Shown here in pieces: positions 48,031-64,000 of a stretch of DNA of 64,000 bases. The number at the start of each line of letters is the position of its first letter. The stretch's first letter is position 1. The notes under the pieces are model-generated. The model did no database searches and had not been told where the DNA came from. It saw nothing but the letters and a program-made list of their open reading frames with translations. Source of the stretch: Zhouia amylolytica (GTDB lineage: Bacteria; Bacteroidota; Bacteroidia; Flavobacteriales; Flavobacteriaceae). Position numbers and translations under genes: made by a program. The stretch covers positions 279,881 through 343,880 of the forward strand of contig NZ_FPAG01000006.1 in assembly GCF_900116365.1 (NCBI RefSeq), in the 5' to 3' direction.

Positions 48031-48202
48031 ATACTTAGATGGCCCCTTTTCTGAAGCCTGGAATGTGTTATCATAGTTTGTAGCATAGGACTTTAAGCTA
48101 CTGCTTATCCTCCCATGTAGCAAGAAACAGTTTTTCAAATAAATCTATTAGATTTGTAGGAAACATACTAAATATAAACACCATATGGTGATTGTACAAT
48201 TG
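48031..48202 (+). repeat. array module 1: leading segment, integrase tail remnant, attI-like end
   Basis: Begins CATACTTAGATGG, continues with a segment shared with modules 4 and 5, then 'HVARNSFSNK' coding remnant of a tyrosine recombinase (48116 onward), then AAACACCATATGGTG and CAATT before GTT at 48203. Its palindrome is broken on the right side. It forms the left edge of the array, directly after the truncated SDR gene. Confidence 0.65.
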
Positions 48203-48220
48203 TTAGCTAACATTTGAGAA

Positions 48221-48820
48221 ATGACATTTGTATTAATATTTTTTGGTATTTTAATCGGACTGAATTTAATACCAGGGCTAATTAAGAAAGAATACCCCAA
48301 AACCGAAAAAATTATTACTCGAATTGTGTTTTATGCAACCATAATATTCCTGATTTTGATTTTGTTATCGTTTTTTGGAATTAGATTCAAAGGACTTTAT
48401 ACGAACACAATAATCGGTCTGACTTTTTTAATATCAAGTCTATTTTATTTCGCAACGAAAAAAAACACAAGGAATAAAATAAAATCAATAGTAATCTTAT
48501 TTCCATTGATTTTAGCTGGTTTATATTTGCAGTTTTTTAATCAAAATTTGGGAACGTATAAAGTAAATGACGAACTCAATATAAACATCAGCCAAGAAGG
48601 ATTTTTGGCTTGTGGAGAAATAATCCGACTGACTAAATCAAGGCTACTGATTTTTGAAAAGGAATTGATTTATGACAGTAACCAGTGTTTGAGAGGAATA
48701 GACCGAATTGAAATGATTGAATTTAATGATAAGCGTGCTGAATTTTTAATTTATCATAATAGAGAAATGGACTCTGAAAACCCTTATCCTTACGAAATTG
48801 AAAATAAAAACGTGTGGTAA
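48221..48820 (+). CDS. cassette 1: membrane protein of unknown function
   Basis: I do not recognise a family. The 199-residue protein has four hydrophobic segments (about 2-20, 34-55, 60-80 and 90-108) and a soluble, charged C-terminal half of ~85 residues. The start ATG is 18 bases past the cassette boundary GTTAGCTAAC (48203). The stop TAA (48818-48820) lies inside the next recombination site. The cassette's end match to its own boundary is weak (GGTAAC against GCTAAC), so this cassette may have been rejoined. Confidence 0.6.
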   Translation: MTFVLIFFGILIGLNLIPGLIKKEYPKTEKIITRIVFYATIIFLILILLSFFGIRFKGLYTNTIIGLTFLISSLFYFATKKNTRNKIKSIVILFPLILAGLYLQFFNQNLGTYKVNDELNINISQEGFLACGEIIRLTKSRLLIFEKELIYDSNQCLRGIDRIEMIEFNDKRAEFLIYHNREMDSENPYPYEIENKNVW

Positions 48821-48895
48821 CAACTTGTATAGCTCATTGCGGCTGAGCATCCTCGTGGATATCCGGCAACGAGCCATACACAAAACTGTTGGCAC
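48815..48895 (+). repeat. attC-like site between cassettes 1 and 2
   Basis: TAACAACTTGTATAGCTC on the left pairs with GAGCCATACACAA-AACT-GTTG on the right; the stem has a two-base bulge, as attC sites do. The loop 'ATTGCGGCTGAGCATC...' is shared in part with the site before cassette 8. GTT at 48888 starts cassette 2. Confidence 0.65.
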
Positions 48896-48911
48896 TAATT
48901 TGAAAAAATCT

Positions 48912-49568
48912 ATGAAAAGAAACTTAATTCATTTGACTTTAGTTCTGTTCTCCATATCAGCTTATTCCCAAACATTCTCTGAAAGCTACTATGACTTATT
49001 CAGAAAATCTTGGGAAAAAGAACCGACTAAAGAAATGATTGACCAAGTTGACCCGAAAATGGACAGTTTGTACAGAGCGACAACAGGAAAAGGATTTTGG
49101 GAAATGCAAGCAGAGGGATTAAAAAAAACTACAACAAACAATATCAATAATTATAAAAAAGTCTTTGACCTCAAAAACTTGGACATCGATAAAATTGACT
49201 ACTTAATTATTATTGAGGAATCTATTAGAGGAACGAACTTTCCACCTGACTTTAGCCGTAAAGGATTTGTAGTAATTGGGTCAGATATGTTCACATATTA
49301 CTATAATCCTGAGAATGGAAATTCCTTAAAATTGACAAGTGACTTTTTTGACGAATCTAATCCTAATTATAAATCAAGACAGGTTGTAACTGATATTGCA
49401 AAATCGAATAAAGTAGAGCAATTTTCGATTTTAGCAAAAAAGGAAATGGAAATAGAAATTGGAGAACCAAAAATAGAATACGAAATAGTTGTTTTTGATA
49501 AAAAAATGGGGGATAAACCACTCAAAATAATTTACCTGCACGATTTTATCACTGAACTAAAAGATTAA
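48912..49568 (+). CDS. cassette 2: exported protein of unknown function
   Basis: The best start is ATG 48912 (MKRNLIHLTLVLFSISAYSQ), giving 218 residues with a signal peptide ending YSQ. A TTG 12 bases before it is in frame (L-K-K-S-M-K-R), just after the cassette boundary. The mature part is charged and has no recognised domain ('VDPKMDSLYRATTGKGFWEMQ', 'YLIIIEESIRGTNFPPDFSRKGFVVIGSD'). The cassette is bounded by GTTGGCAC (48888) and GTGCTAAC (49578), a match with one G-T pair. Confidence 0.65.
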   Translation: MKRNLIHLTLVLFSISAYSQTFSESYYDLFRKSWEKEPTKEMIDQVDPKMDSLYRATTGKGFWEMQAEGLKKTTTNNINNYKKVFDLKNLDIDKIDYLIIIEESIRGTNFPPDFSRKGFVVIGSDMFTYYYNPENGNSLKLTSDFFDESNPNYKSRQVVTDIAKSNKVEQFSILAKKEMEIEIGEPKIEYEIVVFDKKMGDKPLKIIYLHDFITELKD

Positions 49569-49577
49569 TAAAAACTA

Positions 49578-62432: not shown

Positions 62433-62438
62433 AAGGCA

Positions 62439-62584
62439 GCAGCTAACACGGTATATAGCAAATAGGGCGTTTGGTAGTTTACGAAAGTATAAATATAAAA
62501 CAAAGGTCAGTGCAAAACCGATAGGTTTGTGAGTAAAAATCCGCTACTTTTCATATACGAGACCGTTAGCATACATTTGAATAA
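62439..62584 (+). repeat. attC-like site between cassettes 14 and 15
   Basis: GGTATATAGCAAATAGGGCG pairs with the right arm CCGCTACTTTTCATATACG. The loop again has the 'AAGTATAAATATAAAACAAAGGTC' element. GTT at 62575 starts cassette 15. Confidence 0.7.
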
Positions 62585-62651
62585 CCTTCCCAAAAATTAT
62601 TATTGTAACATTCTGTTTTTGAATCAGTCTTTTGAATAAATTTAAGACTAT

Positions 62652-63647
62652 ATGAAATTATTAACAACATTACTATTATTAAGTATTTGTTCTATTTCTT
62701 TCGCACAGAGAACAAAAATTATAAAAGCATTTAATCATCATTCTATCATATTAAAGGGCGATACAATAAACTATCATACATATTCCAAAAAGAGTGTCGA
62801 TTCAACAAAAAATCTGCTATTATATATTCAAGGCTCAAAAGCTATGTCTCTCTATCAAACAATGGAAGAAGATGGAAAAACCTACGTTGGAACTGTAATT
62901 CCCATTGATTTCAAACTCTTACCAGAGGATTATTTGCTTGTGGTAATTTCAAAAAAAGGATTTCCTTTCCTAACAGATATGGACAAAGAATTTCCCGTTC
63001 CAAAAGAATATTATGAAAATCAAACGTTAGTTTACAGAGCTTTTCAAGCCAATCAAGTAATCAACGACTTAACTGAAAAACATAAGAACCATTTTGAAAA
63101 AATAATAGCACTTGGTCATTCTGAAGGAAGTGATGTAATTGCTAAATTAGGGACAATAAATAAAGAAATTACACATTTTGGTTATTGGTCTGGAGGTGGA
63201 AATACACAATTTATTGACTTTGTAACTTTTATTAGAAAAGATGTTGTTAAAGGCAACCTGACAGAAGAGCAAGCGCAATTGAAAATCGATTCGTTATTCA
63301 TAGATTTAAAGGACATTATGGCTAACCCAAATGCTACTGACAAATTTTGGCAAGGAGATAAGAACAGTTATAAAAGATGGAGTAGTTTTTCTGAGCCACC
63401 CATTGAAAATTTATTACAAATTGACAAACCAATATTTGCAGCAATTGGGACAAAAGACCAAGCAGTAGCTCTAGAATCGGCTTACTTAATACCAATAGAA
63501 TTTATAAGACATCAAAAGGATAACTTAACTTTTAAAGCGTATCCAAATTTAGACCACGTATTTGGGAAAGAAATAGAAGCCAGAAAATTTGAAGAACATT
63601 TGAATGATGTCTTTATAGATTTTTTAAATTGGGTAAATGAAAACTGA
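62652..63647 (+). CDS. cassette 15: exported alpha/beta hydrolase
   Basis: A 331-residue protein with a signal peptide (MKLLTTLLLLSICSISFAQ). The mature part is an alpha/beta hydrolase: the nucleophile elbow G-H-S-E-G at 155-159 ('ALGHSEGSDVIAKLG'), an acid in 'GTKDQAVALESAYL' and a catalytic His in 'YPNLDHVFGKEI'. Substrate is unknown, likely an ester or amide in the periplasm or outside. Bounded by GTTAGCATAC (62575) and GTATGCCAAC (63655), nine of ten bases. Confidence 0.8.
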   Translation: MKLLTTLLLLSICSISFAQRTKIIKAFNHHSIILKGDTINYHTYSKKSVDSTKNLLLYIQGSKAMSLYQTMEEDGKTYVGTVIPIDFKLLPEDYLLVVISKKGFPFLTDMDKEFPVPKEYYENQTLVYRAFQANQVINDLTEKHKNHFEKIIALGHSEGSDVIAKLGTINKEITHFGYWSGGGNTQFIDFVTFIRKDVVKGNLTEEQAQLKIDSLFIDLKDIMANPNATDKFWQGDKNSYKRWSSFSEPPIENLLQIDKPIFAAIGTKDQAVALESAYLIPIEFIRHQKDNLTFKAYPNLDHVFGKEIEARKFEEHLNDVFIDFLNWVNEN

Positions 63648-63664
63648 TAAAAACGTATGCCAAC

Positions 63665-64000
63665 AATGGTAAACGTTGTACAACCTAATTAATTACATAA
63701 ATACAAGCTCCAAATAAGCCCTTTTAAGGGCTTTTATTTTACGCTTTAGTTTCTTACAAACTAAAAATTTAAAGGCTTGTAAAGAAGTAAAATCCGTCGC
63801 AGGAGTACTTTTAGCACAAAACAAACACCTTTCATACTTGATGCCCCACTTTGTGTGTGTTTCTCTATAAATTTCAGGTACTTCTTCAAATTTTAAGCAA
63901 TGGCAGAGAGCTGTATATATTTACTGGAGAATGGAACTGACTTAAGATATATTCAGTTGCTATTAGAGCATAACAGCACCAAAACTACAGAAATTTACAC
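63665..64000 (+). repeat. array module 6: IS1182-like tail and integrase tail, cut by window end
   Basis: A second copy of the module at 52002-52431: AATGGTAAACGTTGTACAACC, the AAGCCCTTTTAAGGGCTT stem, a minus-strand IS1182-like tail, then plus-strand 'LLENGTDLRYIQLLLEHNST' up to the last base. The copies differ at many positions, so this is old or diverging duplication. Its right end would reveal whether a full integrase or another cassette follows. Confidence 0.75.

What the first reader, a model, noticed from the sequence alone, without database searches (positions are those of the whole stretch)
48031..64000. A long array of about 15 integron-like gene cassettes in a flavobacterium, with cassette-specific inverted end sequences
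Seen: within each cassette the 7 bases after the leading GTT are the (near-)reverse complement of the 7 bases before the trailing AAC, while neighbouring cassettes differ. Ten-base matches are perfect in cassettes 3, 5 and 13, nine of ten in 6, 7, 8, 11, 14 and 15, and weaker in 1, 2, 4, 9, 10 and 12. Known: in integrons the first bases of a cassette come from its own attC, so this covariation is the expected mark of site-specific insertion at G/TT. Departure: the base after GTT is always A or G but the rest does not follow GTTRRRY, and the complementarity extends to 9-10 bases. The genes all point one way and each is tightly packed. Inferred: an undescribed or poorly described type of cassette system.
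Basis: partly seen in the sequence, partly recalled or inferred. Interest (0 to 1): 0.93.

Follow-up and report, generated by a model that had tools for sequence, protein, structure and literature searches.

The report
Integron-like cassettes with non-canonical integrase
This stretch is a run of 15 gene cassettes, and related runs of up to 84 cassettes in other Bacteroidota sit beside a recombinase that lacks the extra segment regarded as the hallmark of integron integrases, so these bacteria likely collect genes with an integron-like system of their own.

Summary
Fifteen cassettes lie at 48202-63664; each start (GTTN7) matches its own end (N7AAC) far better than other cassettes' ends (0 of 20,000 permutations). 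The array is a relic: the genome search found only 3' fragments of the integrase gene, each with an attI-like site.

Relatives keep the system. In G040 84 consecutive cassettes (62 perfect, 22 nine-of-ten) follow the recombinase; Winogradskyella, Seonamhaeicola, Aequorivita, Algibacter, Flavobacterium and Rufibacter have shorter arrays. Cassettes shared between genera have borders at G/TT.

It differs from classical integrons. The recombinase lacks the IntI additional domain (63-64 residues between catalytic K and H, against 105 in IntI). The attC-like sites mostly lack the extrahelical L'' base and carry conserved G.T wobbles (A.C on the top strand), one invariant in 42 of 42 sites. In one subclade an attI-like palindrome follows the integrase stop.

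Likely mechanism (inferred): cassettes insert through folded bottom-strand attC sites, the strand being chosen by wobbles. Ten literature searches found no description. Against a clean split: one site lies beside a true IntI gene, and new-type sites occur in IntI-bearing genomes. Recombination is untested.

The parts
48114..48204 (+). remnant: 3' end of the integrase gene plus attI-like site (palindrome decayed), followed by G/TT of cassette 1
   Evidence: (hit C13:327994-328084)
48202..48821 (+). cassette 1 (one ORF, 199 aa); same cassette as number 33 of the G040 array (82% identity), in which both ends match 10/10
48819..48891 (-). attC-like site (bottom strand)
48888..49585 (+). cassette 2 (ORF 48798-49568 as listed; the likely start lies inside the cassette)
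49583..49708 (-). attC-like site
49741..49832 (+). remnant: integrase 3' end plus attI-like site
49829..52001 (+). cassette 3, five ORFs (HTH_20, AHSA1, DoxX-like, unknown, glyoxalase-like); ends match 10/10
52030..52435 (+). remnant: left-over of an insertion sequence fused to integrase 3' end plus intact 22-bp attI-like palindrome (52404-52425)
52432..53010 (+). cassette 4 (186 aa)
53008..53129 (-). attC-like site
53126..53712 (+). cassette 5 (two short ORFs); ends match 10/10
53710..53884 (-). attC-like site
53881..54630 (+). cassette 6 (240 aa); found in another genus (G458), homology starting at the GTT
54631..54736 (-). attC-like site (partial model match)
54800..55326 (+). cassette 7 (158 aa)
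55324..55412 (-). attC-like site
55409..56248 (+). cassette 8 (112 aa)
56335..56427 (+). remnant: integrase 3' end plus intact attI-like palindrome (56397-56418)
56425..56809 (+). cassette 9 (112 aa)
56980..58384 (+). cassette 10 (438 aa, AhpC/TSA thioredoxin-like)
58382..58504 (-). attC-like site (one of the 42 training sites of model R1)
58501..59139 (+). cassette 11 (201 aa)
59137..59312 (-). attC-like site
59309..59796 (+). cassette 12 (125 aa)
60022..60115 (+). remnant: integrase 3' end plus attI-like site
60112..61744 (+). cassette 13 (two ORFs, 233 and 307 aa); ends match 10/10
61742..61800 (-). attC-like site (short)
61797..62447 (+). cassette 14 (203 aa)
62445..62568 (-). attC-like site (one of the 42 training sites of model R1)
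62565..63664 (+). cassette 15 (331 aa)
63694..64000 (+). remnant: left-over of an insertion sequence plus integrase 3' end, cut by the contig end; the array goes on at the other end of the same contig

Best explanation
This is an array of integron-like gene cassettes, in a genome where only 3' fragments of the matching integrase gene were found, and it was likely built by a Bacteroidota tyrosine recombinase that is not a canonical integron integrase. Shown: each cassette's first 10 bases are the (near-)complement of its last 10 and the ends covary; the cassettes are separated by structured attC-like sites; in relatives the arrays begin within about 160 nt of the recombinase gene; whole cassettes recur in other genera and at other array positions with borders at G/TT. 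Inferred: the recombinase captures the folded bottom strand of the attC-like site, with R boxes and L boxes paired, recognises the strand by conserved G.T wobbles (mismatched A.C on the other strand) instead of by extrahelical bases docked in an I2 helix, and exchanges a strand at G/TT with the attI-like site beside its gene. In the window's genome the integrase gene is broken, so the array is likely no longer maintained and its end pairs have drifted.
For: Own against cross end matching in the window, 0 of 20,000 permutations. G040: 84 consecutive cassettes, 62 at 10/10 and 22 at 9/10, two shuffles give 1. In 18 loci chosen because they hold an array, the first cassette lies 37-160 nt from the integrase stop codon in 17; perfect 22-24-bp palindromes of differing core sequence lie in between in 8. 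Catalytic RKHRHY kept, and K-H spacing 63-64, in all 22 array-neighbouring recombinases, against 105 in 20 of 20 TIGR02249 proteins and in 2 Planctomycetota proteins that group with them, and 69-71 in the host's XerC/D. L stem of 42 sites: 94.9% paired, 11 of 14 pairs with changes on both sides, 0 of 500 shuffles as high; one pair is G.U in 42 of 42. A/C at R position 11 in 160 of 183 cassettes found without rewarding it, against 0 of 42 in IntI arrays. L''-side extra base in 5 of 153 new sites against 27 of 39 IntI sites. Bottom strand folds more stably in 137 of 144 sites. The site model hits 10 window junctions, all on the bottom strand, and nothing in the 16 loci flanking 8 IntI genes. Seven duplicated cassette pairs in G040 have unrelated flanks. 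Algibacter/G449 cassette: identity per 40 nt jumps from 0.50 to 0.95 at GTT and falls at the next G/TT. W. ursingii/G085 cassette: both ends, 3.3 kb apart, carry matching changes. No full-length integrase of the family in the own genome.
Against: No recombination has been observed. L111 has a full-length integrase and 12 kb downstream without a detected array, as have the more distant relatives L120, L121 and L125; 71 of 80 named loci show none (many are distant relatives or short contigs). New-type sites also occur in genomes with IntI: 11 of 12 genomes re-searched carry IntI, and in one of them, G540, a single site lies 1.0 kb from the IntI gene. Five of 19 genomes with such sites or remnants (G000, G557, G609, G619, G620) gave no match to the recombinase at E <= 1e-40. 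IntI sites show the same bias toward bottom-strand wobbles in the L stem (25 to 2, against 280 to 18), so only the conserved places of the wobbles are special. In two shared cassettes (G085 against Algibacter; G458 against the window) the attC interior differs while gene and R box are kept. Own attC identity of duplicates (0.977) is only a little above the array background (median 0.941). In F. enshiense one L-stem wobble goes the other way (9 of 10 sites).
Confidence: 0.85

Rival explanations
1. An ordinary IntI integron whose integrase was lost; the XerA/IntI-like recombinase next to the relatives' arrays is a passenger.
For: The attC anatomy (R''-L''...L'-R', G/TT) is that of integrons; true IntI genes occur in the phylum, 84 of 296 genomes over the cut-off; one new-type site lies 1.0 kb from an IntI gene in G540.
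Against: Of the 85 genomes listed with IntI at E <= 1e-60 all but one lie outside the window's class, while arrays start 37-160 nt from the I2-less recombinase in 17 of 18 array loci. Site features differ (A/C at R position 11 in 0 of 42 IntI cassettes; extra L'' base in 27 of 39 against 5 of 153), and the site model finds nothing in the flanks of 8 IntI genes, 3 of which show arrays.
Confidence: 0.06
2. Gene blocks shuffled by homologous recombination between the repeated intergenic hairpins, without site-specific recombination.
For: Sites in one array are very alike (G040 background median identity 0.94); swapped attC interiors would fit gene conversion.
Against: It does not explain why each cassette's two ends match one another and change in step in a shared cassette, nor borders at G/TT where the preceding attC sites differ (Algibacter/G449).
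Confidence: 0.05
3. Xer-dependent mobile modules (pdif-like): genes between core sites moved by the host's XerC/XerD (comparison recalled).
For: The recombinase core is closest in sequence to XerA, and Xer proteins also lack I2 (PMC7790495, passage).
Against: The arrays have long structured hairpins in one orientation and a dedicated recombinase beside them; the host's own XerC/D are separate genes (L027, L028).
Confidence: 0.04

Closest known systems
Integrons with IntI and attC (sedentary chromosomal integrons / superintegrons)
   Same: Tandem cassettes in one orientation, R and L boxes, folded bottom strand more stable, borders at G/TT, array beside the recombinase
   Different: Recombinase lacks the additional domain (63-64 against 105 residues between K and H); few L''-side extrahelical bases, G.T wobbles at conserved places; one subclade has the integrase pointing into the array with a palindromic attI-like site at its stop
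CALIN (attC clusters lacking an integrase)
   Same: The window's genome has cassettes without a full-length integrase of the family
   Different: The array carries repeated integrase 3' ends with attI-like sites; sites are of the new type
Archaeal XerA / NCBIfam NF040815 'site-specific tyrosine recombinase/integron integrase'
   Same: Best sequence match: both proteins scanned pass its cut-off (223.5 and 230.0 bits against 220); no I2
   Different: Extra N-terminal part of about 100 residues in one subclade, association with cassette arrays
Delta-attI-type cassettes of mobile integrons (PMC12901181, search listing with start of abstract only)
   Same: attI pieces inside a cassette array
   Different: Here they come with the end of the integrase gene, six times in the window

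Membership tests
Integron (IntI type) | Integron integrase with the IntI-specific additional domain / I2 helix | tested here: not met
   K-H spacing 63-64 against 105; TIGR02249 scores 203.3 and 203.9 bits against a cut-off of 265, with the match split at that place; the alignment to IntI 2a3v breaks there, that to XerA does not. Tested on relatives, as the window has no full-length integrase
Integron (IntI type) | Recombinase inside the IntI clade | tested here: not met
   IntI 100/100 clade without array rows; the 22 array rows on one side of a branch 86/90. A common array+IntI clade is not rejected (AU p 0.07)
Integron (IntI type) | Tandem co-oriented cassettes, each with its own attC | tested here: met
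Integron (IntI type) | attC with paired R and L boxes | tested here: met
Integron (IntI type) | Extrahelical bases on the L'' side | tested here: not met
   5 of 153 new sites against 27 of 39 IntI sites; 92 new sites have an extra base on the L' side (74 of them in G040) and 56 none. Only single-base shifts within the first part of the L stem were sought
Integron (IntI type) | attI beside the integrase gene | tested here: inconclusive
   Conserved place; palindrome in 8 of 18 loci; no activity tested
Integron (IntI type) | Single-strand (bottom strand) attC recombination | not testable with these tools
   Only folding energies: bottom strand more stable in 137 of 144
CALIN | Two or more attC sites without integrase | tested here: met
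   10 window sites, no full-length family integrase in the genome; the sites are not classical attC
XerA / NF040815 | Score over the curated cut-off | tested here: met
   2 of 2 proteins scanned; XerA's chromosome-resolution role not tested

The most novel reading that the evidence does not exclude
Bacteroidota carry a second kind of integron, whose recombinase took up cassette capture independently of IntI: it never had the I2 helix and reads the strand of a folded attC by G.T wobbles instead of extrahelical bases.
Probability: 0.42. Interest if true: 0.96.

Novelty: new variant of a known kind. Interest (0 to 1): 0.9.

Why it matters
The I2 helix is described as the acquisition that led integron integrases from double-strand to single-strand recombination (PMC7790495, abstract and passages). 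A large array system with an I2-less recombinase would show another way to do this, or its ancestral stage, and makes the question testable: swap wobbles for extrahelical bases, or graft I2. It would also reveal a gene-sharing pool that current searches likely miss: IntegronFinder 2.0 names Salinibacter as its complete integron in Bacteroidetes proper (PMC9024848, passage), while the site model here finds sites in 68 of 247 genomes of the class.

Tried and rejected
Looser chain search: long chance chains, replaced. Strict L-stem filter: broke true chains. Rfam: no family in 44000-64000. Pfam on 20 array ORFs: 15 without a hit over the family cut-off. Promoter-like TAnnTTTG (motif recalled) at cassette starts: 3 of 84, background 0.02, not pursued. 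N-terminal part of the recombinase: no PDB sequence match better than E 0.08; the structure matches cover only residues 103-376, and the domain was not folded alone. Divergent treble-clef protein: no PDB relative by sequence at E <= 1, no Foldseek match with E <= 0.001. The origin of the repeated integrase 3' ends remains open.

Biases to know: window borders were picked by eye; the chain program demanded A/G at base 4, gave a bonus for A/C at position 11 and rewards pairing of the L boxes. Rerun without the first two over nine arrays, 177 of 183 cassettes have A/G at base 4 and 160 have A/C; shuffles of this freer version gave chains of 1-3. The site alignment used 42 of 57 sites listed, of 112-128 nt, from eleven genomes; the choice was mine. 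G040 sites are near copies of one type, so its 83 sites are not independent. The 18 loci were chosen for having arrays; L115 was the one outside the range (1982 nt).
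Full report
What is there. The window ends at the end of contig C13 of its genome; the array runs from 48202 to 63664 and goes on at the other end of the same contig, whose first 74 bases repeat the window's last 74, so the contig may close on itself (inference). 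Fifteen cassettes have starts GTTN7 and ends N7AAC that match their own partner (mean 5.60 of 7) and not others (2.57); no permutation of 20,000 came near. Between cassettes lie attC-like sites of about 50-170 nt, ten of which are found by a covariance model, all on the bottom strand. Two of these ten were in its training set.

A relic. Six times in the window, and in six hits elsewhere on the contig (one of which may be the contig-end overlap), the array holds the 3' end of a tyrosine-recombinase gene followed by an attI-like site (palindrome ATAAACACCATATGGTGTTTAT, intact at 52404 and 56397) and, in the copies that can be read on, mostly a G/TT cassette border. No full-length recombinase of this family was found in the genome: of seven Phage_integrase matches one is the remnant at 52248-52349 and six are other recombinases, and there is no match to the family protein at E <= 1e-40. 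A genome of the same genus, G001, has it intact with three perfect cassettes behind it.

The intact system. In G010 a 376-aa recombinase is followed, 45 nt from its stop codon, by eight cassettes, seven of them with perfect ends. In G040 84 consecutive cassettes cover 69.5 kb, 62 perfect and 22 with one mismatch; two shuffles gave one each. The longest ORF points with the array in 81 of 83, lies 24 nt from the start and 14 nt from the end (medians), and is 172 aa long (median). Named genomes with such arrays directly after the recombinase: Flavobacteriaceae bacterium S0862, Winogradskyella ursingii, Seonamhaeicola aphaedonensis, Aequorivita sinensis, Rufibacter sp. SYSU D00344, Algibacter onchidii and Flavobacterium enshiense; G032 and G580 add two more, 48 nt apart from it. 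In all, 33 of 132 loci examined held two or more chained cassettes; 9 of the 80 named loci did; 0 of 33 shuffled loci did. L111 has an intact recombinase and 12 kb downstream without an array, and so have the more distant L120, L121 and L125.

The cassettes move as units. G040 has seven duplicated cassette pairs: genes 93-100% alike, flanks unrelated (0.61 and 0.63), own attC 0.977 alike, preceding attC 0.899, own higher in 6 of 7; the background between attC sites of that array is 0.941. Between genera, the same cassette in Algibacter and G449 is 0.95 alike in the first 40 nt from GTT and 0.50 in the 40 nt before, and ends after its attC at the next G/TT. Window cassette 1 equals G040 cassette 33, and window cassette 6 a cassette of G458; in both, the BLAST match begins at GTT, with a weaker step (0.57 to 0.72 and 0.60 to 0.88). 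A 3.3-kb cassette in W. ursingii and G085 has ends GTTGTGTGTA/TACACACAAC in one and GTTGTAAGTA/TACTTACAAC in the other: both ends changed in step. Among 307 cassettes of 25 regions compared end to end, four pairs were shared between genomes under a strict cover rule. No strain pair was available.

The recombinase. It keeps the catalytic RKHRHY and is closest to XerA and IntI. The stretch between catalytic K and H has 63-64 residues in all 22 array-neighbouring recombinases, 105 in 20 of 20 TIGR02249 proteins and in two Planctomycetota ones that group with them, and 69-71 in the host's XerC/XerD. This missing stretch is where IntI carries its additional domain, which others call a defining trait (PMC9668308, passage) and whose I2 helix docks the nucleotides that protrude from the folded site (PMC7790495, passages). 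On a tree made without that insert, the 22 array recombinases, with 18 unlabelled Bacteroidota ones among them, lie on one side of a branch (86/90), apart from IntI (100/100); a common clade of the two is disfavoured but not rejected (p 0.07), so one or two origins stay open. An N-terminal part of about 100 residues is present in one subclade. A divergent treble-clef protein of about 125 aa stands next to the recombinase in 20 of 25 loci.

The sites. R boxes pair over 10 nt, then comes start A against end C at position 11, then two or three more pairs. A/C occurs in 160 of 183 cassettes found without rewarding it and in 0 of 42 cassettes of three IntI arrays from the same phylum. The L stem of 42 sites from eleven genomes covaries (11 of 14 pairs change on both sides; 0 of 500 shuffles) and holds an invariant G.U (G.T) pair on the bottom strand, 42 of 42, and a second one in 29 of 42. 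On the top strand these are A.C mismatches. L-stem mismatches that can wobble only on the bottom strand outnumber the reverse 280 to 18; but in IntI sites they do so too, 25 to 2, so it is the fixed places that are special here. Classical L''-side extra bases are rare (5 of 153, against 27 of 39 in IntI arrays). The bottom strand is the more stable one in 137 of 144 sites. The I2 helix and most of the L''-side bases it would dock are thus missing together, while wobbles mark the strand: this coupling is the core of my mechanism and is inferred.

attI. Between recombinase stop and first G/TT, 8 of 18 loci hold perfect 22-24-bp palindromes, seven of them ATAAAC...GTTTAT with differing cores. The other ten, W. 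ursingii, Aequorivita, Rufibacter and Algibacter among them, do not. In G524, G518 and G002 a short recombinase without the N-terminal part points away from an array that begins about 105-114 nt upstream of the recombinase match, the layout usual in integrons (recalled); K-H spacing is 63 there too. Their place in the tree is unsure.

Spread, and results against a clean split. The site model finds sites in 68 of 247 genomes of the class (E <= 1e-3) and 57 of 198 of a phylum sample (E <= 1e-4), including other classes. True IntI (over the cut-off) occurs in 84 of 296 phylum genomes; of the 85 listed at E <= 1e-60 all but one lie outside the window's class. The model finds nothing in the flanks of 8 IntI genes (16 loci). 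But 11 of 12 genomes re-searched carry both IntI and new-type sites; in ten of the eleven the sites lie on other contigs or tens of kilobases away, and in G540 one site lies 1.0 kb from the IntI gene, with no chained cassettes. Of 19 genomes checked, 14 have a match to the recombinase and 5 have none at E <= 1e-40. So the sites travel beyond their recombinase, or IntI can use some of them.

Known or not. IntegronFinder 2.0 reports In0 and then one complete integron (Salinibacter ruber) for Bacteroidetes, besides Chlorobi and Ignavibacteriae (PMC9024848, passage). A tyrosine-recombinase survey notes that the insertion is not fully conserved in its 'integron-like subgroup' (PMC8138268, passage), so relatives may already sit in that subgroup. 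NCBI's model NF040815 would name these proteins 'site-specific tyrosine recombinase/integron integrase'. None of the papers I saw, in passages or listings only, describes these arrays. I therefore file it as a new variant of the integron kind and not as a member of the IntI family. The window's organism is likely a Flavobacteriaceae (inferred from named relatives; no call names it).

Noticed in passing
window 52005-52270 and 63665-63920; L066 11707-13412 (G001): Left-overs of an insertion sequence with a 525-aa transposase (IS1182-like by recall) sit right after an attC R box; in G001 several full copies lie in the arrays at the same kind of place, so it may target attC-like sites.
   Followed up: partly
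window 48114, 49741, 52030, 56335, 60022, 63694; L021 115, 3009, 5947, 9223, 12142, 13865: Integrase 3' end plus attI-like site repeated through the array, most copies followed at once by a cassette; perhaps these pieces move as units of their own.
   Followed up: partly
L178 14534, L242, L245 10481; window 54630 v L241: Same gene and R box but another attC interior in a different genome: interiors seem to be exchanged separately.
   Followed up: partly
L158 15898-19278 and L245 4676-7994: A 3.3-kb cassette whose gene has an NPPY motif like DNA methylases (recalled); the first part (about 1.9 kb) is 90% alike, then the sequences part, as if a specificity part were swapped.
   Followed up: no
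L070 8139-8606 and 19 other loci: Conserved divergent treble-clef protein of about 125 aa beside the recombinase; possible accessory or regulator.
   Followed up: partly
G540:C116:36147-36271 (L293): A single new-type site 1.0 kb from a true IntI gene, divergent from it.
   Followed up: partly
G000:C12:83701-83824: A further site-model hit in the own genome on another contig (L024 gives a chain of three cassettes).
   Followed up: no
window 49829-52001: A five-gene cassette (HTH, AHSA1, DoxX-like, unknown, glyoxalase-like), large for this array.
   Followed up: no
L021 1-74 and window 63927-64000: The two ends of contig C13 share 74 bases, so the contig may close on itself or break at a repeat.
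   Followed up: no
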